Positions 29,305-58,300 of a stretch of 64,000 nucleotides of DNA are shown piece after piece. The notes under the pieces were generated by a model, which was not told the origin of the DNA, made no database searches, and saw only the letters and a list, made by a program, of their open reading frames with translations. The DNA lies in contig OX463781.1 of assembly GCA_949825025.1 (NCBI GenBank), forward strand, positions 47,008,317 to 47,072,316. Direction: 5' to 3'. This stretch comes from Siphlonurus alternatus. Lineage: Eukaryota; Arthropoda; Insecta; Ephemeroptera; Siphlonuridae. The stretch's first letter is position 1, and the number at the start of each line of letters is the position of its first letter. Both the position numbers and the translations under genes were made by a program.

Positions 29305-29393
29305 CTATCCACTGGACTGCGCCGGCGTTGGCAGAATTTCAGGTGTCTTTGTGGGTGCTGGGCTGCTATCATCACCACCAGACGTGGCCCACA
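29305..29393 (-). CDS. Synaptobrevin exon 6: end of anchor and lumenal tail
   Basis: Begins after TTTGCAG, completes the Val codon and encodes [18 protein letters not shown], then [11 protein letters not shown] and the stop codon TAG at 29307-29305. VW closes the membrane anchor. The remaining 27 residues are a Ser/Pro/Thr-rich tail inside the vesicle lumen, as in several invertebrate synaptobrevins. An alternative last exon elsewhere in the intron cannot be excluded. Confidence 0.88.
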
Positions 29394-32300
29394 CTGCAAA
29401 CAAAATAACGAGTCCCATCAATTAAGTTGAAAAGTTGTACAGAACACCAATTTTAGTTCTTACAAGATAGGGAAATTACCAACACCTTCAGTTAAAAAAA
29501 CATATAAGAATATGAGAACCTGATAAATAATTGTGATTATAAGAAAATGCACATTCAGGTTGATTTTTCTATCCCAATTGATAATGAACTGTATAATATA
29601 TAGTGAAGCTACGTTTTTATATTCCTAAAGCAAAAACCTATTTGCTTCCCCCACCACTCCTAATATTTGATGATATTGAGAATACAACTCTGACTTCTTC
29701 AAATATTGGAGGCAGAGAGACGCTAATTGAACAGCAGGTGAAGGGATTCGAAGGAATATCTAGAGAATCAGCTGTTGAGTAAAAAAAATGCAGCCTGAAT
29801 TTCAAACAATTTGAAACAACTCATATATTTACATAAACAAGTGAACAACAAAAAATTACACAAGCTGCCAAAGAACCAGTAGCAGAAAATGAGACACAAG
29901 CTGCAAGCGGATAACATTGAATTTTCAGTATTATCTGTGGTAACACCGAGTTGCACACCATTCCCTAGGACCACTGTTATTAAAACACTGAACATCTTAA
30001 TTCTTAATACAAAATTTCACAGATTAGATACTAGTACCATTAGTCTCTAGTTTGATTGGGATAAATTGAACTTTAAACCTGCCAGATTTGCTGGCTCCAA
30101 GAGACAGATGGACAGAATAAAGTAATTTTGGGCGATGTAAGAAGAGGACATTCCCTAGTAATCTTAAAAACTACTTTACTGTTCTAGCTGTTCCTTCATT
30201 AAGAAACAGATGGAACGGAAGTGATTTTAAGTTTGATCCCAGCAACCATAGACTGCTTGGTGTCTAGACACAGCCAGGTAAAGTTTGTACTGTGCCTCGA
30301 GGTATAAGTCTGCATGGATCTAGCTTGGGTCAGGCACATCGGCAGCCTACAAAAGCCTTGCTAAGCCTTAGATTTATAATGAAAGTTTTTCTATTTGTTT
30401 TTATCAAGGGAAAACAAAAAGAGGGGGGGGGGGATAAGAAAAAAAAAAAAAGAATATGAAAAAACGACTTTGTTGTCAGTTTTATAATGGGTTGTAAAGC
30501 ACTAAAATAAAAAGGAACACATTGAGTGAACCAAGTTTGAACCACGGACGGGTCCCGGGCCGAGCTTAAAAAATACAGCCCATGCAGACCTCTAGCGTGG
30601 AGTATACAATGCACATTTTTAATTAAATTAATAATTATTAATATCAAAAAATAATATCATACTCAAATTTTTGTTATCCTTAATTTTAATAGTTAATTAA
30701 TTTATTTTTATATTTTCAAACTCTCTAAATTTTTTTATTCAACAATTTTTGTTATACTACTTCACAGTTTTTCAATGTTAGTAAAGGAAAGCAACATAAA
30801 ATGACATACACCATAGAAAAGCCAATTCAAGACACCATGCACATCTGAAAGAGTTAGTGAAGAACTGAGAAATGTTAGTGGACAGAAGAAAGACAAGTTA
30901 GGAGAAGACAGCAACCACCAAAGCCTGGAGGAACATCAAATCACTCACCGATGATAATAATGAGCAAAACTGCTGCAATAACACCCATAATCAGCATCAT
31001 CTGAAACCATTCAGTTCATGAGTACAACACGTCAATTGACGACTTGGGAATTGATAAAGTACTGGGACAAGATATGCCTAGTACCAAAATTAATAAGCCT
31101 TCACATTACCGTAAGACTGATACAGTAACTTATGGAAACATAAAGATGACATTTAGTTATGATATTAGGCAACTTGAACATTCTAATCTATACTCTAATA
31201 TAAATAAAAACAAAGTATATATGTACCAGTTTGTCTTGACTATATTTATATACAGTATTTAACGAGGACTCCATTACAACTATAAAAAGATAAACCCAGC
31301 GTAAGAAATTAAATTTTCTTTGTTAAATGTTAGTCACAGTAACATTAAAAAAATATATGTAATGGGTTATCATGCATCAGTAATAACATAATAGAAGGTA
31401 CTCTTACTGTACAAGACAATTTGGTAAATAAAAAAAGTTAAAATATTTTAACAAATATTCAACAGAATGGGTTGACTCTCTGTTCCAAAATGTACTCTCA
31501 AAAGCTATCTCTTGATTGCAGATAAATCTCACCTTCAAATTCTTCCACCAGTACTTCCTCTTGAGCTTGCCGGCCTGTTGTTCGAACTGGGACGCCCCCT
31601 GCTGAAGAGCATCTGTGCCAAGGAAACACAAATTGTAAACAAATGCATTTCCATGGCAACAGTGCACCTTGTCAAGGTTATTGTTAAGGGGAAAGTGGTA
31701 AACTTGAAAGACTGCTGATAACTCTTGGCTTAACTCTAGCTTTAAGATAAGTTGTGTTGTTTTCATTGATTATTGATTTGAAGGTGGGTTTTAATTTTGT
31801 TTTCTGTACTAGCTGCTACAAAGAGTAAGTTACAATAACATCACCACTCGAGCTATTTCCAATGACATTTTAGTAATTGACAGAGCACAACTTTTGGAAT
31901 TCATTGTAACTATTATCTAAGTAGCCTCCATACTTAAGGTTTTCTGTATATTTCTAATATTACTGCTTCATTATGCAGTAATTTGTTCCAACATACAAAG
32001 ATTGATTAACTAAAAATTATCCTTTAATAATTATAATGCTTTAACAAAAATATAAATTTAGTGTCACTGGTAATTTATTATTATAATTATTTCTAATTAC
32101 ATGATTATATGTCAATCTAGCAAAGACATCTTAACATTACAGTGCTTAATATTAAGCTAACAATTGTAAGCTTAATTTTGCTTAATTTTCTATGTTACAC
32201 CATCTAAAATAATCAACATTGAACCTACGGTAAGCTTAAGCAGTATCTATGCAAGTGGGTGTGATTATGAGAGGAAGAAGATACTATTGAATGAATATAA

Positions 32301-34193
32301 CAATGAATATGAATATTTAACAGATATATTTTACATTGAAAAACCTAGCATTTTAATTAATCAATTACCAGTATCATATAAAAGAAATATTTTTAAAGTA
32401 ATAGAAATAATAAAATCTTACATGCAAATATTAAAATCATTAAAAGTGGCAAAAAAACAAACATAGAGAAGCTGCTAAAGGTAAAACTAAAAGACTGGGT
32501 TTTATTATTGTTTGTTTTAATTTCCAGCACAAAGATGGAAGTACAATATTGAAGGCAGGCAAAATACACTTTGAGACGCAGACCCACAAGTACAGAGAAA
32601 TGAAGAATGAAGAGTACATAAATACAACAAAACTATTTTTTATATTCATGCTCTATGCAAATTTAAAGAAGACTAGAGAATAAATTATCAGATGCTTTTA
32701 ATCAGTGAATTAAATTGCTTACATTTCTGACCCTCTTATTTACAATCCACTAAAAAAAAAAAAAAATCAATGACATTTACAAATACAAAATCTTTTGAAG
32801 CTTAAGTTACAGCCCACAGATAAAACAAACTTCTTGTTTTTAAAGATGCACAATTTAGAGTTTTCAGTAAAGAGAAAACTTGTCAATTCAATTTTACACT
32901 GATATTTAGGTTTGAATCTTAGATTGGTGGACTCGTGGGTCTGCCGCCACATTTTGCTCACCTGCTCTGTTATCCAACTCTGAGAGCTTCTGGTCTCGCT
33001 CCAGCACCTTCTCTACGTTAGTTCTCATGATATCCACAACCTGCGTGGGGCATGCATAGCAGCGAGTTAGTGACAGCAAGGGAGAAAGAGAGAGGGGGTG
33101 GGGGTTGATGCCGCATGCCGCCTCGGTCTGAAACACTCTCACCTGCCCGGTCATCGAGCTCTGACAGCTTCTGGTCTCTCTCCAACACCTTCTCTACGTT
33201 GACACGCATGATGCCTACCACCTGGGGGCAAATCTTGTCAATTCAAAATCGCCTACTAGTGGAGGAGTAGAATAATTTTTTACTTTTTTTTTACAAAGAT
33301 TTGTATATTTTTTTAAATGTTAACAAGAAACTTCCACTTCCAGAACTTGACACTGGACCATAATCTCATTCCATACTGTAAGGGAAAATAAAACTCATCA
33401 ACATAGAGAACAAAAAAAATAATATACTAATTTAATGGTACGGGTACTGTATAGTGTTGTTATAAAAATCAGAACATTTAAAGCATCAATAACACAAATA
33501 CAGGTTTTTCTAAAAAATCTTGTTCCACACATTTTTATTTAACACAATATATTCTTTTCAGAGCTAATAAAATATAAATAATTCAATGAGAGTACTGTAA
33601 TGTATGTTTGAACAATTCTATAATGGAGTATCGTCCTCAATTTTTTTTATTGCAGAAATGGATAGAGGATGCAAAGTTATGCTACCCTGATTTATTTCAG
33701 ATTTTTTTGAGACCTGGAACTATTTTTAAAAAATTATTGAAAGTCCTTTTTGTGACGTCACGCGGCGGCAAGTCCTATCTTTTTCTTAAGGAGCGGCGTC
33801 TCGTGACGTCACGAAAAGAACTTTCAATAATTTTTTAAAAATAGTTCCCGGGCTCTAAAAAATCTGAAAAAAATCAGGGTAGCATAACTTTGCACCCTTT
33901 ATCCATTTCTGTAATAAAAAAAAATGAGGACAATACTCTATTTAATCATTAATTATATGAATCCATTGCAAATTTACAAACAGAGCTGTTGATAAGATTT
34001 TTCAGTGAAATTACCAAAAAAGATTTTAATTCATCCTAACACTTACAAAGTCAGCTGTTGACCAAACTGTCTACACATGACTCACCTCGTCCACCTTGGC
34101 CTGCGTCTGCTGCAGTCTCTTCTGGGCAGCCGTGTTCTGAGAATTGCGAGCGGGGGCCTCGCCCACCCCAGAATACGAGCCGTCGCCTTCCAT
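29305..34193 (-). CDS. Synaptobrevin/VAMP (R-SNARE), with tandem alternative exon 3
   Basis: Vesicle R-SNARE that pairs with syntaxin and SNAP-25-type proteins to drive fusion of vesicles with the plasma membrane. Coding exons (transcript order): 34193-34086, then either 33221-33143 (3a) or 33040-32962 (3b), then 31612-31533, 31000-30949, 29393-29305. All introns are GT-AG and all phases match, giving 135 aa. Residues 1-26 are a variable, hydrophilic N-terminus. The SNARE motif runs about 27-86 with zero-layer Arg51 in LERDQK. A juxtamembrane [12 protein letters not shown] precedes a single membrane anchor (about 90-108), followed by a 27-residue Ser/Pro/Thr-rich lumenal tail ending PAQSSG. 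The length fits invertebrate neuronal synaptobrevins. ATG at 34193 is the first in-frame Met inside exon 2; splicing to exon 1 would create one more Met immediately upstream. Family assignment is very secure; orthology to a particular paralogue (Syb or n-Syb) is not, because the alternative exon carries features of both. Confidence 0.95.
29394..30948 (-). other. Intron 5 of synaptobrevin
   Basis: About 1.55 kb without a supported second gene. It contains a G run at about 30423-30432 and some moderately GC-rich unique sequence (30210-30350, 30520-30600). The open frames here have no family resemblance or splice support. Confidence 0.6.
30949..31000 (-). CDS. Synaptobrevin exon 5: transmembrane anchor
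   Basis: 52 nt between GGTTTCAG and GTGAGTG. It encodes [17 protein letters not shown] plus the first base of a Val codon: nearly the whole C-terminal membrane anchor (residues 90-106). The MM start and the beta-branched C-terminal half are typical of synaptobrevins. Confidence 0.93.
31533..31612 (-). CDS. Synaptobrevin exon 4: C-terminal half of SNARE motif
   Basis: 80 nt, entering in phase 1 and leaving in phase 0, flanked by TTGGCACAG and GTGAGA. It completes the split Asp codon and encodes [18 protein letters not shown] followed by RKYWWKNLK (residues 63-89). This gives layers +4 (Leu65), +5 (Ala69) and +6 (Phe72) and the basic/aromatic juxtamembrane stretch that touches the vesicle lipid surface. 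Either version of exon 3 joins it in frame. Confidence 0.95.
32962..33040 (-). CDS. Synaptobrevin alternative exon 3b (ubiquitous Syb-like version)
   Basis: Lies 102 nt downstream of 3a in the transcript, is also 79 nt and has identical phases. It encodes [18 protein letters not shown], then LSELDNRA plus one base. Its acceptor CCCACGCAG has a consensus branch-like CTAAC with the branch A at about 33067. Upstream of that is a long C/T tract of the kind bound by PTB proteins (33075-33105). It ends GCAG before GTGAGCA. Including 3a and 3b together adds 158 nt and shifts the downstream frame. The Asp and Thr states at residues 39 and 43 match fly Syb as I remember it. Confidence 0.93.
33066..33105 (-). 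promoter_or_regulatory. Pyrimidine tract and branch-like site between exons 3a and 3b
   Basis: On the minus strand CCCCCTCTCTCTTTCTCCCT precedes TTGCTGTCACTAAC, whose branch-like A (33067) is 26 nt before the 3b acceptor. CUCUCU/UUCU tracts are classical PTB sites. The donor of 3a is about 75 nt from this branch point. Confidence 0.5.
33143..33221 (-). CDS. Synaptobrevin alternative exon 3a (n-Syb-like version)
   Basis: Preceded by TTTGCCCCCAG and followed by GTGAGAG. It is 79 nt long, enters in phase 0 and leaves in phase 1. It encodes [18 protein letters not shown], then LSELDDRA plus the first base of the next Asp codon: core SNARE residues 37-62 with zero-layer Arg51. It differs from 3b at residues 39 (Gly versus Asp), 43 (Val versus Thr) and 60 (Asp versus Asn). 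The acceptor has a poor pyrimidine tract (purine-rich GACAAGATTT just before it), suggesting a regulated, weak exon. From memory, the Gly and Val states match fly neuronal n-Syb; this should be checked against databases. Confidence 0.93.
33621..33943. mobile_element. CRE-bearing foldback element in synaptobrevin intron 2
   Basis: Near-perfect inverted repeat, TAATGGAGTATCGTCCTCAA ... GGACAATACTCTATTTA. Each arm has TTATTGCAGAAATGGATAGA, an AACTATTTTTAAAAAATTAT block and one TGACGTCA octamer (33753 and 33804) around a central TTCTTAAGGAGCGGCG. It sits between exons 2 and 3a and is on average GC-richer than the intron. Confidence 0.8.
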
Positions 34194-35480: not shown

Positions 35481-35628
35481 GTGCGCTACATCCTGTTATT
35501 AAAAAAAAGCGCCAGTCTTTTAAGACCGGTGAACCCGGGTGAACCTTTGTCCACGAGACCTTTAAACTTTAAATTTTTCTTGAATTTTCTTTTATACCCG
35601 CGGTCTGTATATTTTCAAAAGAACTTAA

Positions 35629-35993
35629 GGTAGAGATAATACGGATCAGCTGGCTCAATGCTAAAAAAATCCCATTCATAAAAATTATGAAAAAAATTTA
35701 AAGTGTTCTCCTCTACATCCCCTATCAGTAGGTAAAATATCAGGTATACAAAAACGAGCTAGTTTTCGAGTTATAAATTTTTAAAGTTGACTAATTTAAC
35801 ATGGAAGTTCCATTTCTCCATGTTAAATTAGCCAACTTTAAAAATTAATAACTCGAAAACTAGCTCGTTTTTGTATACCTGATATTTTACCTACTGATAG
35901 GGGATGTAGAGGAGAACATTTTAAATTTTTTTCATAATTTTTATGAATGGGATATTTTTAGCATTGGGCCAGCTGATCCGTATTATCTCTACC
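35629..35993. mobile_element. Foldback element, TTAA family B, intact copy
   Basis: 365 bp inverted repeat, GGTAGAGATAATACGGATCA ... CTCTACC, flanked by TTAA on both sides (35625-35628, 35994-35997). The arms contain CTCCTCTACATCCCCTATCA and its complement. It lies about 150 bp upstream of the presumed synaptobrevin first exon, so it may touch that promoter. Confidence 0.8.
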
Positions 35994-36507
35994 TTAAGAA
36001 TTAAGAATAATGTCCTCTGTTTTACCCTGATGAATAAATAATGAATAATAACGAAAACATTTTTTTTTTCAATAATATAAATACTGCAATATTTTCACAA
36101 AATAGCTCTTATATATACAAAAATAGCTATAATAATTAATAATTAATTAAAATCGTCAAACAAAATCTATATTAACGTTACAGCACTCTGATTTTCTATA
36201 AGGACGTGTCAGCCTATATTATTACGAATCAAATTTTTTCACAGAAAAATATTGTATTTTAATAAGTTACGTTTTTATTAATTTCATCATAGTATTGTTA
36301 TATAGTGCTGTTACGCAGGCATATTATAGCCATCAGGAACTATAATTTTATTATCTTATGCATTATAATATAATAAAATAGATAATGCATTCAATGAAAA
36401 ATCCAGACAATTTAATGAAACAATATAATTATGCACTTCAAATTAATTTAATGTCAAATTCACTTATCGATTAAACGTTTTATTCTATGTTAAACCGAGG
36501 GCAGGCA

Positions 36508-50820: not shown

Positions 50821-52278
50821 TAAACCACTTTAATTTTTAACTCAATTTAACAGGAGGAAAATTATATAATAAATTGTTAATTTACAAATGATACGGAAGT
50901 AGATATTTCCATACTTACAATTTATTATTTATATTACACAGACATAAAAGTAATTAATTTAATTATATAGACAATTGTTGTCAATTTTAATATTAGGAAG
51001 TACTTAAAATAATTATTAAATATTTTACAAAAATTATTATTATTAATGTATTACAAAATAGAGATTACAATATTTCCATTGTATTTTTTTAAAATTATAT
51101 TTGCAAATATTGATAAAAAGTATAAAAACATATTTTTAAGATTATTTTCTGGCAATTCATTTATTTAAACGCTATTAAATGAACACAAAAGTTGTCTTTT
51201 CAAAGTGACCTTAAAGAGAAGAAAAAATTTGACTTCCTCCTTCGTTACTCACAGCCTTGAATAATTCATGAAGTAATTAAGCATAATGTTTTGTTATCAA
51301 AAACAACGTAAACTTTCGTGTGCATTTAAAACGGTAGCATCAACAACAGTCTTAATTATTATAGTGCAAATTATTATCTCACCAATATCGATTTTTATTC
51401 GATTTTTGTAACTATATTGATGTTATAATTACCAAGGGATTATACTTTGCCATAAAGTGCTAATGTATTAAGTTAGAATACGATGGACTATACGGTTACC
51501 CACTATTTATGTATTTTATCCATGCAAGATCCCACAACGAAGGAAATCGCGTCATAACAACAAGTATATGTTCGTAATAGATAGTTTCTCTAATTAATTT
51601 CTTAAAATTATGCAATTAAACAATATATAAGGTAGATTAAAGTGCAGAAATTGTTCATTATTTAAAATTTTTGAACTAATCTCTAAATTTGAATCTAAGC
51701 TTAATTCTCATGAAACTCGGAAAAAAAATCAGATTCAAAGGAATAGCCTTCCCTAAAAAAGTTCCTCGATAAAAATAGTGCTGCACAGACTTGTCTCCCC
51801 TCCCTCCCCCAAATCTATATAACTAACTTGTCATTATAATACATTATTGGGAAAGAGCAATCATCGCACTCCAGAAAGCGAAGGCTTTCTCTTGCAACTG
51901 AGAATCTTCAATATAACTGTGCTACACGTTGATTCATCCAAGCATTCCACAATTATTATTATGTAATTATAATATTGTAGCATTTTTGTTGTTGTAATTA
52001 TAAATTATATACAATTAAGTGGGACTGTACTACTACTCATATATGCATAGTTATTCGTCGCTTCAGAATATATAATAAGTGTCGTATAATCTAAGTTTTG
52101 ATGCAACTTTAGACCCTAGTTACATGAAACGTAAGTTGTCTAATTGCATCAAAACTTCGTGGTTTATTCTGAGGCGTCGAAATTTTTAATTGTTTACGTT
52201 AACCCAATTTAATAATTTAGAGAAAAAAAATGTTCTAATATGATTGTGTAATAAAACGGTATTGATGTAATGTTTCAG

Positions 52279-52361
52279 CAGCCATGGGGAAAGGAATGGA
52301 TATGGACGGCTGCGGCCAGTTTATGAAGTACAGCATGTTCGTAGCCAACTTCATCATCTTC
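52279..52361 (+). CDS. Tetraspanin coding exon 1: N-terminus and first half of TM1
   Basis: Acceptor TGTTTCAG ends at 52278; five UTR bases CAGCC precede ATG at 52284, so a non-coding exon lies upstream. Encodes MGKGMDMDGCGQFMKYSMFV, then ANFIIF, ending before the consensus donor GTAAGT. If the intron is retained, the frame stays open to a stop at 52566, predicting a 94-residue protein with only TM1. Confidence 0.93.
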
Positions 52362-55300
52362 GTAAGTGTTATTGTGGTGCGTCCATTTAAACCCATAAGG
52401 TCTGTGCTCCGAGTGCTGCCTCCTCGCTGTGTGCTGCTGCATATTGACAGGCTCGCTATACCGCCAGCATCGCCCGCACGAGTCGCAACTACCCCCATGA
52501 CACCCAGAAACATTGCAGGACATAACTTTTTTATGATAAACATGGCCCGGATCTATACTTGTCATTAAAGATTTACTAACTTTATAATTTATTGGTTTCT
52601 CTGTAAAAAAAATAATAAGGTCTGTTCGTAAACACTGCCCAAAGTACAACATTTTCTGCACCCGATCGACCTTATGTCCAAGTACATAAGGTCGATCGGG
52701 TGCAGAAAGTGTACATCAAGGAAGGTTTATCAACAGACCTAAATTATCTTTAAACTAGACGAATTATAAATTAATGAAATAAAAATTAATAGATTACTTT
52801 CATTACTTTCTCGTTTAGACGTATTATAAATAATAAGATAAATTATTTTTAAGACTTTGTGATATGCTTGAAGCTTGACTCCCCTTTTTTTGTGAGACAA
52901 TTTGATTTACTGAAAAGTTTGACGCTTATTACTTGCATGGATTGATCAATTATTAAATAAAGAATGTGAAGGCTCTTTAAAAAATGGAAAAACAATTTAG
53001 AAGCAAAACCAATAAAATTATTTTGAATTCTTTTTCCTATATTAATTAAATAAGAACTATTGCAGTGATGTTTTGGAAATCTGAAAAGAGCATTTTCATC
53101 AGTTTGACTTGATATGTGTGATTCAAATATTGCATCTGATTTGTTTTGTGTTAATTTTTTTATGCCATGCACGTCAATTTTCAGGATTATATTTTACAGA
53201 AATATCATTAGTTAATTTTTGATTCTGTTGTAAATACGAGGCGTAGATAAATTATTGTAAAATGTCGAGGTATCCGGCAGCTTATATGAAATAATTAATC
53301 CTGCGGTTACTCAATTTGTTTATAACACCTAGAGGCAATGACTGCTACATAATTACTACATTATTATATAGATTATATAATTTATATTATTAGATTATAT
53401 AGTTCAACAAACTTAAAATTGCTTCCGAAAGTAGCCGAAAGTGAAACTTTTTATTTGAATGTTTGCAGAAAAATTATATATTGAATTTCAACCTCTCTGC
53501 ATATATAGTCATAGTCCAGTCGGAATCTTCCCACTTTCGCGAATTCCAGTGGTAATCTCGTACTTTTTGAACTGTATCATTCACTCAACAATTAACTCCA
53601 TTTTAGTGCTGAATAAGTCGATGAAAGCAGAAACTTCTCTTACGAGTGTAAAATAACGTATGACAAAATGTATGTAACGAATACGTGTTGTGTGAGTTTG
53701 TATCCAGGATTATTGTAAGCAATTTTGTTGAAATTCAATTCAGGGTGATAATAATAATACTCTAGATCGCTGATGATAGTCTACGAATAGTATGTAATTA
53801 CTGAAAAATGAATTGCTTTTATTACAATTTTTTTTAAAACTGTAATTTAATAAAGTAATGTAACACCATAGAGTATCCATTAATTGGAGTATCCTCGATT
53901 AAAATATACTATATGATCACATTACAATAAAAATTTCCTGCCCTTGCATTTTTATAATCTTGGTCATAGCTTGAACAGGAAAGAGATAACAAACTATAAC
54001 ATTTTCATTTGGGAATCAGAAGCCAAAAATTATTTCGATGGTCAATTTCCTTTCACTAAGGTCGATATTATGCATGAATTTTGCCAAATGATGGCCCTTG
54101 TATACATTCGAGTTACATTGCTGACCTTTATAATGTTCTTCCACGATGATGAAAGGGCAGCGCAGACGGAGGTGTGACGTGTTTATGCGCAGGTCGGCGG
54201 TATCACGGTGCTCGGTATCGGCGTGTGGACGCTCGTGGACAAGGCGTTCATCAACGAGCTGCTGGGGACTAACCTCTTCATGGGCGCGGTGTACATCCTG
54301 ATCGCCACTGGAGCCCTCGTCGCAATGCTCGCCTTCTTCGGCTGCATCGGCGCAGTCAAGGAAATCAAGTGCATGCTTCTCTTGGTGAGTTTTACCATGA
54401 TAACTTTCGCCAGATTATACACCAATATTATTTACACAAGCTTTTTAATTCAAACATAAAAGACATAAAGAGCGTAGATTTTAGCCTAAACATTTATAGT
54501 ACTGCAATTTGATGTAAAATGTTTTAGGGGGGAAAAGAAGCCTAAAATGTATATATGTTAAATTTTGTGTAAATTTCCTTTGGAATTTTTTAACTCAATC
54601 CATCTCGGTATATAATTAAAATATACTATAGACTATCTGCTGAAAACTCTTGCTTATATAATGGTTTTTCTAATTTACACTAAATCAATAGACAATAATG
54701 GTTGCATTTTTTTATTTCATAATTAGAAAATATACCTAAAATTATGCTTTTCTGAATTTTTTCAGATTTTTTGGAGTGCGGGAACTAATTTTAAAAAAAT
54801 ATTTAAAATCTCTGAATTAGGGTGGTACACCTGATGGGACAACCATGACGTCATTTGTCGTGCTGTGATTGGCTATTGATGACATCACGGTTGCTGTGAT
54901 TGGCTATTGATGACGTCACGGTTGTCCCATCAGATGTACCACCCTAATTCAGATTTTTTAAATATTTTTTAAAAATTAGTTCCCGCACTCCAAAAAATCT
55001 GAAAAAATTTCAGAAAAGCATAATTTTATGTATATTTTCTAATTATGAAATAAAAAAATGCAACCATTATTGTCTATTCAATTTTATTTTATATATTTAC
55101 TTTTCCATATCGAATTACTGGTGAACCCCAGTCTAAATTCTAACTATAATACATGTATATTTAAATATTTTAAATTCAGATACATTGTACATTTAAAACA
55201 TAATTATGTATTTCTTTTACACAATATCCCTCGATATTAAGATAAATTATAAAACATCTGACAGAGATTAACAGTTTCTCTTCCTCCTGGATTGTGCCTT

Positions 55301-58300
55301 TCTTGATCAGTCAAGCTTCCTAGTAAGTAACAATTCCAGATGACCGCACCTCTCACGTCGATCACCAAAAACAACAATACGTAATAAAGAAGAAACACAC
55401 TTATTACAAGAGCTTCCAATCTATTGTTTTCACTATACAAATTGCATGAATACATCACGCTTTCACAGAAGATTATTAAAAAAACACATAATGAAATGAA
55501 TTTTAATAGGGGCTATTTCATAGACGATTAAAATTATATGTTTAATTTGTTTTTCCGTAATAGGTTTTTTAAATATACTTTCTGATCGATCGCCGAGATG
55601 ACTTGAAAGCATCATAAAATTTACCACTGCGGTCGTGCATGTTACAAACACAGAGTGAAGGAGTGCACTTTTTATTTGCATTAGAGTGCAGAGTCGTACA
55701 CGTACATTATATTTCTTAAAAAAATAAAATTTTGATATAAATAATAAAAAATATTCACTGAAGCGTGTGAAGCATATTATATAGATATATTATATGCATG
55801 ATTGAAAGCATGGTTTAAAGCAACAAAAAGCATATATATAATAAATTCAAAGGGAAAAAAATAAAGTATTGCGTAAGGACTCGGGAATGTCAGAATAAGT
55901 ATAGACTTTTTATTTTATCAGAAGATCAAAAAATGTTGGAAATTGTCCGAGTTCAAAAACCTTAAAATGTATAAAGACTGGTCACGCTACGGTTTTATGA
56001 GTTTTAGTCGATAACACGCACGTGGGTGATTTTATATTTCGTATTATGACGCAAAACAGATCATGTATATTTGTGTAATTTCAAAATTAGCTAGTTTAAA
56101 GTGCCATGTGAAGTTTGCATGGGGAAATTTTCAGCAGTGTGTTCAATTGTTATTTATTTTGTTTGCATATTTTTTACGTTAAAGCTTGAATTCAAATTCA
56201 AAATGCTTTTTTTTTTCAGAAAACACATTAAAATAAAAGCTTTATTTTAATTCAGTGCAGTTCTGTCACGTGTATTAATACGACACCTGATGCATGGATT
56301 TGCAATTTTAGTTACAACTTTTATCCTCGCCAAAGAGTGTGTGTTATTTTTTTAAGCCAGTACCAATTTTTGATAAACACATTGTTTAAACACATTTATT
56401 TGTTGTACACCCTTCAATAAATTTTTAGTTTGTAAAATACCAATTTTTGTTTTGAATTAATTTTGATATACTTTTTAATTTTATTTTACTGTATAAATAC
56501 TATTATAAATAAATAATAATAGTTTAAATTTGAAGTCTAAAAATACATTTACGTATTTTTTTTTAAAATTGATGAATACAGTTTATAATATGTTAAAAGA
56601 AAAGAGTAATGTATGATCAGTATGATTAACAAGGCTGAAAAAGGGAACTTATTGTTCAGCCTGCATAAGTTTGAACGCAACCCGCTATGCACAATAAGTT
56701 GCATAACGCCAGTCAACATTTAAAAAATTAACTACTAAATTAAGCCAAATTACTCTTTTTGAATTAACAATCATATATCATCTTAGAAATAAGTGACGTG
56801 TTATTTCTCTGCACGCACTTGTCATCTTCATCGTCAAACTATAACATTATGATTGACGAGCACCACAATGCAATACAATAAAATTATAGTTAAAAATTTT
56901 ATCGAATCATTTTTAAATTCAACACGTCTTAATCTTCGATATAACTTAATGTATTTCCTAGTTTCTAAACTCTGTTCTATATTTTTGTTTACAAGCATAT
57001 ATTATATAACATAAGAGTATATTTTTTTTTATTGAAATGCACACACCACGGTATATCACAATGCTGACTTGAATATATAAATATTTACAATACACCACAC
57101 AAATACACTCACATTTGCATATTAAAACAGCAATTCTACTTTATAATGACACTTTGGACACAACTAGAGTCAAATTAATTTGATATTCCCACCGGAAGTA
57201 GCCGGAAGTTGAGGGTTTCTGTCTTTCCTCTTCATATTTGAAGTTTGAAACTTTGCAAAGAGGTTTGTAATAAAATTACAGAGTTTTTACAAAATTTCTG
57301 AACGCAGACATGAACAGGAAGGTAAGAAAACACTTCCGGCTACTTCCGCCAATAATTTAAAATCAATACAACTGTTTGTCATGTATACATGTATGAGTTT
57401 GCTCAGAGCCCTCAGAGAGCACGCTTCAACTATATTTTATTGTTTGAATTAACAAATTTCTCACTATATAGCAGGAAAATGGCAGTAAAGCAATTCATGA
57501 AAATTAAATTTAAATTTTGATCTTTTAAAGATTTCAGCATTGTGAGAAATCAAATCATAATTTATTTCGCTACAAATGTTGAGAACGCGATTTCCCACAG
57601 TACGCATCTTGTGACGCCTCTGGCGGGGTGTTTCAGTACTTCCTGCTAGTCCTCGTGGTATTCGTGGTGATGCTGGTTGGTGGAGTGCTGGGCTACGTCT
57701 TCCGAGAAACGGTGCACAACTCCATGGAACAGGAGATGCAGGCCTCTCTGAGATTGTACGGCGAGAACCGAGCGATCACCAACGCATGGGACTCCACTCA
57801 GGAAACGGTGAGTTTTCAAACTTTTAATACAAACTATACTGGAGATTTGTGTAGCAGCGTTCTATATAATATGTCCTTTTTATGGACTGTTTTAGTGTCT
57901 CCTACCTCTAACTTGTTTTTTTTTTATGTATCCATGACGGAAATATAATAAATTATTATAACATACACTTTTCTCCCCATTTTATAATTTGAAGAGAGGA
58001 TATCTATAGTTCAGTTTGCAAATTAATAATTAATTAAAATCCTTGTAATTAATTATTTTGTGATTGTGTATTTATATACGAACTGACCTATTGAGGTTTA
58101 TAAAATGTATTATAATAATATTCGTTCTGTTCGGTACGCACTCTAAAAAAAATAAAAAAAAAAATAAATAAATAAAAAAATTACGTATTTTGCAGTTATA
58201 TAAAAAATATATAATTTTATTATATGGAATTGTAATTTTAAATTAGTGCCCAGCGATCAAACGGTAATAAATGTCATATTCACAACAGGTATAATATAAC

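What the first reader, a model, noticed from the sequence alone, without database searches (positions are those of the whole stretch)
32962..33221. Synaptobrevin with two tandem, frame-enforced alternative core SNARE exons
Exons 3a (33143-33221) and 3b (32962-33040) are both 79 nt, both phase 0 to 1, each with its own acceptor and donor, separated by a 102-nt intron. Skipping both or using both shifts the frame, so one must be chosen. The duplicated segment holds the zero-layer Arg and the middle of the fusion helix, so splicing would swap the centre of the SNARE bundle. I do not know of this arrangement in a described synaptobrevin.
Basis: partly seen in the sequence, partly recalled or inferred. 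Interest (0 to 1): 0.88.

Follow-up and report, generated by a model that had tools for sequence, protein, structure and literature searches.

The report
Ancient exon choice in arthropod synaptobrevin
A mayfly-like gene for synaptobrevin, the vesicle protein that drives transmitter release, carries two interchangeable versions of its middle exon of which only one fits per message; the same pair turns up in gene models of another mayfly, four spiders, an isopod, a springtail and a thrips, so the choice looks very old, although no RNA could be checked here.

Summary
On the minus strand, exons 3a (33221-33143) and 3b (33040-32962) are both 79 nt, both phase 0 to 1, with GT/AG borders and a 102-nt intron between them. 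Either one gives an open 135-residue synaptobrevin; none or both runs into an early stop. They are old and constrained: 62/79 nt identical, dN 0.11, dS 1.37.

The interpretation needs two corrections. First, the SNARE core is not swapped: all eight layer residues, the zero-layer Arg included, are identical in 3a and 3b. Only outward positions change (VAMP2 numbering 44 G/D, 48 V/T, 65 D/N). Second, this is not a mayfly oddity. Eight gene models from a mayfly, a thrips, a springtail, an isopod and four spiders hold both versions in the same order, joined by variable, intron-like linkers. In insects with two genes, the G/V version is typical of Syb and the D/T version of nSyb.

Best reading: an ancient, frame-enforced mutually exclusive exon pair, older than the insect Syb/nSyb split and later divided between those genes. 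The effect probably lies at accessory-protein surfaces (inferred). No transcript evidence could be obtained. Ten literature searches (listings capped) showed no description.

The parts
34086..34193 (-). Exon 2 (coding part): start codon and first 36 residues, [36 protein letters not shown]; ends in phase 0
   Evidence: tblastn with Ephemera danica P0001
33143..33221 (-). Exon 3a, 79 nt, phase 0 to 1, [26 protein letters not shown] (G44/V48 'Syb' type)
   Evidence: type shared with fly Syb genes
33041..33142 (-). 102-nt intron between the alternative exons; GC 0.60 against 0.30 for the window; branch-point-like CTAAC about 76 nt from the donor and 26 from the acceptor
32962..33040 (-). Exon 3b, 79 nt, phase 0 to 1, [26 protein letters not shown] (D44/T48 'nSyb' type)
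   Evidence: type shared with pterygote nSyb genes
31533..31612 (-). Exon 4, 80 nt: C-terminal half of the SNARE motif and linker, [27 protein letters not shown] (the D is a codon split with exon 3)
30949..31000 (-). Exon 5, 52 nt: transmembrane segment, [17 protein letters not shown]
29305..29393 (-). Exon 6 (coding part), 89 nt: lumenal tail [29 protein letters not shown] and stop
   Evidence: tblastn match of Ephemera danica P0001, E 0.009

Best explanation
This is a Syb-type synaptobrevin gene of a mayfly-like insect with a mutually exclusive exon pair. Shown from sequence: two homologous 79-nt exons with complete splice signals, under constraint, only one of which keeps the frame; both versions, in the same order, in gene models of four spiders, an isopod, a springtail, a thrips and another mayfly; and the two versions in separate genes (Syb and nSyb) of many winged insects. 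Inferred: the pair arose by exon duplication in an early arthropod or before, each transcript takes one exon, and wrong products (none or both) are truncated and removed by nonsense-mediated decay. When the gene duplicated in the insect line, nSyb kept 3b and most Syb genes kept 3a, while mayflies and at least one thrips kept both in Syb. Most likely action, inferred: the choice leaves SNARE zippering as it is and changes an outward stripe at residues 44 and 48 (and 65 here), which tunes binding of accessory proteins such as complexin, synaptotagmin or Munc18.
For: Structure and frame. Constraint: dN 0.106, dS 1.37; 8 of 11 differing codons are synonymous. Conserved pair: 8 gene models carry a G44 unit followed by a D44 unit, in that order 8 of 8 (G44/V48 in 7 of 8 first units, D44/T48 in 7 of 8 second units), with linkers of 2 to 37 residues; 6 of 8 linkers start GE or GK, which is what a donor G|GTGAG or G|GTAAG reads as, and the other 2 end in Q, as a CAG acceptor reads; beyond that they have little in common, though two spider linkers share GE.LN. 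Same flanks, different exon: in decapods, proteins with 93-97% identical flanks carry version a (Homarus isoform X1, P0082; unnamed P0043) or b (Procambarus X2 P0187, Panulirus X2 P0100, Petrolisthes P0108); in Armadillidium one model holds both and another (P0125, labelled UNVERIFIED_CONTAM in the database) b alone, with 99% identical flanks. Split between genes: 69 of 69 proteins with the nSyb marker FWLQN are type b, and 26 of 26 with QWWAN or HWWAN (dipteran Syb where I looked at a name) are type a; these markers cover 95 of the 213 proteins with an exon-3 unit. Of 223 exon-3 units, 108 are D/T, 102 G/V, 13 other. PMC9811660 (passages) places synaptobrevin residue 44 near helix HA of the synaptotagmin-1 C2B domain in the proposed tripartite interface.
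Against: No RNA was examined. The double-exon models are automatic predictions; genomic DNA of those species was not seen. The decapod comparison is between genera, and 'isoform' labels are the database's own; in no species did I see an a-only and a b-only isoform of one gene as separate listed proteins (the database is clustered at 90% identity, which would hide such pairs). The rule a = Syb is not clean: four Syb-like hymenopteran proteins (Chelonus P0036, Microplitis P0078 and P0121, Orussus P0152) are D44/V48. The exon-free tree rests on about 85 residues, its support values were not printed, and it does not resolve the deep branches. PMC9811660 itself could not detect the tripartite interface in solution. 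The 76-nt donor to branch-point distance does not suggest steric exclusion, and the RNA fold of the region is no better than shuffles (z +1.75), so no exclusion mechanism is seen. Drosophila Syb and nSyb were reported to be interchangeable (recalled; paper not held), which argues against a large functional difference.
Confidence: 0.75

Rival explanations
1. The pair is a real mutually exclusive set, but the two proteins are equivalent; its use is regulatory (tissue-specific splicing, or lowering output through out-of-frame products), and the residue changes are tolerated rather than selected.
For: Only three outward residues differ; recalled report that Drosophila Syb and nSyb replace each other in vivo; in insect Syb gene models that keep both, 3b has drifted more than 3a (Ephemera 4 against 0, Frankliniella 7 against 1 changes from the reference peptides).
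Against: G44/V48 and D44/T48 stay coupled in 210 of 223 units, and 3a is identical between the window and the spiders Argiope and Larinioides, which is hard to explain without selection on the difference.
Confidence: 0.3
2. The exon pair arose separately in several lineages, and G/V and D/T are convergent.
For: The species sampled are scattered and the deep tree is poorly resolved.
Against: Same exon, same order (8 of 8 models and the window), the same two residue states in most units, and synonymous divergence of 1.37 in the window.
Confidence: 0.1
3. One exon is a dead copy or an assembly error.
For: Tandem duplications are a common assembly fault (general knowledge).
Against: 17 differences with dN/dS near 0.08, intact splice sites, unlike introns, and both versions in the Ephemera danica model.
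Confidence: 0.03
4. Both exons are included together to give a longer SNARE helix, as the automatic models have it.
For: Eight deposited models join both.
Against: Direct joining shifts the frame to a stop; the models keep the frame only by reading 2 to 37 residues of variable, intron-like sequence.
Confidence: 0.03

Closest known systems
SNAP25 exons 5a/5b of vertebrates (PMC2581893, passages read)
   Same: Tandem duplicated exon of a neuronal exocytic SNARE, one used per message, few residues changed, ancient duplication
   Different: A different SNARE (Qbc, not R; recalled); vertebrate; that paper dates it to early bony fish and says it was not described in Drosophila
Dipteran Syb and nSyb genes (names from hits)
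   Same: The two proteins carry the same two exon-3 versions (G/V and D/T)
   Different: Two separate genes, each with a single exon-3 type in the proteins seen, instead of one gene with a choice
nSyb C-terminal splice variants of Drosophila (PMC6025963, passages read)
   Same: Alternative splicing of a synaptobrevin in neurons
   Different: Changes the C-terminus, not the SNARE motif
Arthropod N-cadherin exon pairs ME-7, ME-13, ME-18 (PMC2655722, passages read)
   Same: Mutually exclusive pairs kept in arthropods for over 400 million years, with later loss of one member of two pairs in the honeybee line
   Different: Adhesion protein; no link to a later split between two genes was seen in the passages read

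Membership tests
Synaptobrevin / VAMP (R-SNARE) | Synaptobrevin domain | tested here: met
   PF00957, E 1.9e-32 for residues 1-106 of each isoform, 111.4 bits against cut-off 26.4
Synaptobrevin / VAMP (R-SNARE) | Zero-layer arginine (VAMP2 R56) and conserved core layers | tested here: met
   Both exons carry VLERD; alignment to VAMP2 chain 2kog_A for the 3a isoform; layer numbering is recalled
Synaptobrevin / VAMP (R-SNARE) | C-terminal hydrophobic segment and short N-terminus without longin domain | tested here: met
   Full 135-residue translation, read by eye; Pfam listed no longin domain
Mutually exclusive exon pair | Homologous neighbouring exons of like length and phase, each with splice sites | tested here: met
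Mutually exclusive exon pair | Skipping or double inclusion breaks the frame | tested here: met
Mutually exclusive exon pair | Transcripts contain exactly one of the two | not testable with these tools
   No RNA data; indirect only: single-type proteins with 93-97% identical flanks in related decapods
Mutually exclusive exon pair | Exclusion by intron too short for splicing or by paired RNA elements | tested here: inconclusive
   102-nt intron, branch-point-like site 76 nt from donor; fold z +1.75

The most novel reading that the evidence does not exclude
The fly division of labour between cellular Syb and neuronal nSyb began as a splice choice inside one ancestral arthropod synaptobrevin gene, more than about 500 million years ago (age of the arthropod lineages, recalled); gene duplication in the insect line then fixed each splice form in its own gene, and mayflies still carry the original choice within Syb. 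The choice acts through residues 44 and 48 on the outer face of the SNARE helix.
Probability: 0.5. Interest if true: 0.78.

Novelty: new member of a known kind. Interest (0 to 1): 0.62.

Why it matters
Synaptobrevin is among the most studied synaptic proteins, yet the fly lineage appears to have lost the splice choice by turning it into two genes. If right, spiders, lobsters and mayflies choose the middle of their v-SNARE by splicing, and residues 44 and 48 mark the surface that separates 'cellular' from 'neuronal' synaptobrevin. That makes a specific, two-residue test of accessory-protein control of fusion possible.

Tried and rejected
RNA structure as the exclusion mechanism: the 319-nt region folds no better than shuffles (z +1.75, 98 of 100 shuffles at least as stable). 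A TGCATG (Rbfox-type, recalled) site at 33056-33051 ends 10 nt before exon 3b, but the motif is more than twofold enriched over the whole window (70 against 30.8 expected), so it is not counted as evidence. A second synaptobrevin in the window: none convincing by tblastn with nine relatives. DNA of relatives in viral contigs: 11 pattern matches, none confirmed. Gene models of Ditylenchus (P0158, P0159), Rotaria (P0161, P0184) and Anopheles dirus (P0160) have repeated units, but as tandem whole SNARE domains (linkers of 92 and 86 residues in the two measured, P0159 and P0184); they were set aside as gene, not exon, duplications, but their units stay in the counts. In one search, 2 of 215 proteins (P0068, P0099) showed no exon-3 unit by the pattern and were dropped; the pattern itself required N at 49, A at 67 and M or I at 46, so the lack of variation there is partly by construction. 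The proteins are the listed top 120 of each of three searches (of 3565, 3214 and 3425 hits), so they lean to close relatives. For the tree 58 of the 215 proteins were chosen by hand, plus the window and VAMP2. The reference peptides used were chosen by me and equal the versions in the spiders Argiope and Larinioides, so 'changes from reference' is relative to those. Two of three dN/dS methods failed; only NG86 gave a value, rough for 26 codons. Literature searches that showed no description of this pair; one search was aimed at residues 44/48. Listings were capped (20 of 91; 12 of 16; 12 of 33; 15 of 652). Passages of PMC8626913 and PMC4946901 held nothing on it.

Full report
What is there. 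The minus strand from 34193 to 29305 encodes a complete synaptobrevin of 135 residues in exons 2 to 6 (the coding start is in exon 2; a 5' leader exon was not determined). Exon 3 exists twice: 3a at 33221-33143 and 3b at 33040-32962, each 79 nt, phase 0 to 1, with its own acceptor and donor, 102 nt apart. Using either gives a 408-nt open frame; skipping both gives 329 nt with a stop near the end of exon 4, and using both gives 487 nt with a stop inside 3b. The first 106 residues of both isoforms match Pfam Synaptobrevin at 111.4 bits.

Not chance, not an artefact, not recent. The exons share 62 of 79 bases; the next best match of 3a on either strand of the window is 37 of 79. Similarity stops at the splice signals (87-nt repeat; intron flanks 11/40 and 16/40). 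Eleven codons differ, 3 of them in meaning; NG86 gives dN 0.106 and dS 1.37, a rough value from 26 codons but far from a fresh copy; two other methods failed. Codon identity among the 23 shared residues (15 of 23) is a little above what the gene's own codon usage predicts (11.6), so there is no strong case for gene conversion.

What changes in the protein. 3a reads [26 protein letters not shown] and 3b [26 protein letters not shown]. By alignment to VAMP2 (2kog_A) the exon spans residues 42 to 67 (numbering and layer assignment recalled: layers -4 to +3 at 42, 46, 49, 53, 56, 60, 63, 67). All eight layer residues are the same in both, so the core of the bundle is not swapped. Differences are at 44 (G/D), 48 (V/T) and 65 (D/N), heptad positions f, c and f by spacing, all outward. 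Across 223 exon-3 units found in 213 of 215 related proteins, the layer positions are fixed or differ in one unit each, though the search pattern itself required N49, A67 and M or I at 46; positions 44 and 48 fall into two coupled states: D/T in 108, G/V in 102, others 13. These proteins are the listed best hits of three searches, so the sample leans to close relatives.

Whose genome. The best hit is Ephemera danica B566_EDAN002767 (P0001), a mayfly, whose exon-2 part from MEGDG on differs from the window at 3 of 36 residues and whose model contains both exon-3 versions (its score is raised by having two). In the exon-free tree the window pairs with it, beside the mayflies Cloeon and Neocloeon. 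The window is therefore probably from a mayfly, not E. danica itself; the species was not determined.

How wide and how old. Eight gene models contain a G44 unit followed by a D44 unit: Ephemera (mayfly), Frankliniella fusca (thrips), Orchesella (springtail), Armadillidium (isopod) and the spiders Argiope, Larinioides, Trichonephila and Caerostris. The order matches the window in 8 of 8. Seven of 8 first units are G44/V48 (Orchesella has M48) and 7 of 8 second units are D44/T48 (Frankliniella has E48). The linkers between units are 2 to 37 residues; 6 of 8 begin GE or GK, as a donor read through in frame would, and the other 2 end in Q, as a CAG acceptor would; beyond that they have little in common, except that two spider linkers share GE.LN. 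I read these as automatic models that forced two mutually exclusive exons into one frame, which points to the same exon borders as in the window. Genomic DNA of these species was not seen. Further support: with exon 3 left out, Homarus isoform X1 (type a) and Procambarus isoform X2 (type b) are 96% identical, Homarus and Panulirus X2 (b) 95%, Homarus and Petrolisthes (b) 93%, and Armadillidium's two entries (both; and b alone, the latter flagged UNVERIFIED_CONTAM) 99%. Among mayflies, Cloeon isoform X2 is b-like (D44, but D48) and Neocloeon isoform X2 is a. The damselfly Hetaerina isoform X2 is type b with Syb-like flanks.

Split between genes. In many winged insects the two versions sit in different genes: 69 of 69 proteins with the FWLQN marker of nSyb are b, and 26 of 26 with QWWAN or HWWAN are a; the named ones I looked at are dipteran Syb. 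These markers cover 95 of 213 proteins. The rule is not clean elsewhere: four Syb-like hymenopteran proteins (Chelonus, two Microplitis, Orussus) are D44/V48. Lucilia and Hermetia have the two types on contigs of different length, whereas Schistocerca, Venturia and Microplitis mediator have a Syb-like and an nSyb protein on contigs of the same length. In Gryllus longicercus they bear consecutive locus numbers on one contig (R5R35_003568 b, R5R35_003569 a), which hints at tandem gene duplication. The lineages outside winged insects with both versions in one model (spiders, isopod, springtail) suggest that the exon pair came first and the gene split later; the tree is too shallow to prove it. 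In insect Syb models that keep both, 3b differs more from the reference peptide than 3a (Ephemera 4 against 0, Frankliniella 7 against 1, window 1 against 0). In the four spiders, the isopod and the springtail 3b shows no change (six of six) and 3a 0 to 2; the reference peptides were chosen by me and equal the versions of two of these spiders. That fits relaxed or altered duty of 3b once nSyb existed.

How it probably works. Shown: only one-exon messages keep the frame. Inferred: splicing picks one, and failures are degraded. The intron is long enough to be spliced and its branch-point-like site is 76 nt from the donor, so simple steric exclusion is not evident; the region's fold is not unusual. 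The protein effect should lie on the outward stripe. PMC9811660 (passages) placed a probe at synaptobrevin residue 44 because it is expected near helix HA of synaptotagmin-1 C2B in the tripartite interface, though that work failed to detect the interface in solution. Complexin and Munc18 are further candidates from recall. PMC12595502 (passages) reports that deletions of V43 and I45 in this stretch lower binding to syntaxin, SNAP25 and complexin, so the region matters, but those are deletions, not surface changes.

What is known. SNAP25 exon 5a/5b (PMC2581893, passages) is the nearest precedent in the SNARE set. Drosophila nSyb has C-terminal splice variants (PMC6025963, passages). Arthropod N-cadherin shows that such pairs can last over 400 million years (PMC2655722, passages). 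None of the ten searches of open papers brought this synaptobrevin pair into its listing; four listings were capped, subscription papers are not covered, and annotated isoforms already exist in databases, so the exon choice may be known to annotators or described elsewhere.

Limits. The mutual exclusion itself is therefore predicted, not shown.

Noticed in passing
window 52266-57945, + strand: A tetraspanin gene: stretches 54178-54456 (PF00335, E 6.6e-9) and 57583-57945 (E 4.2e-7, just under the curated cut-off). A first exon near 52266 is a guess by eye; Pfam found nothing there.
   Followed up: partly
window 35624-35998: Near-perfect foldback element: 182-nt arms, 97% complementary, 11 nt between them, upstream of the coding exons.
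   Followed up: no
window 33622-33942: A second foldback element (146-nt arms, 90% complementary, 29 nt between) inside the intron just upstream of exon 3a.
   Followed up: no
whole window: TGCATG occurs 70 times against 30.8 expected from shuffles, a bias over the whole window that would mislead a search for Rbfox sites.
   Followed up: no
window 32962-33221: The alternative exons and the intron between them are much richer in GC (0.48-0.60) than the window (0.30).
   Followed up: partly
P0158, P0159 (Ditylenchus destructor), P0161, P0184 (Rotaria), P0160 (Anopheles dirus): Gene models with two or more whole synaptobrevin domains in a row, probably fused neighbouring genes, distinct from the exon pair.
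   Followed up: partly
P0031 and P0170 (Gryllus longicercus): Syb-type and nSyb-type genes carry consecutive locus numbers on one contig, which suggests that the two genes are neighbours.
   Followed up: no
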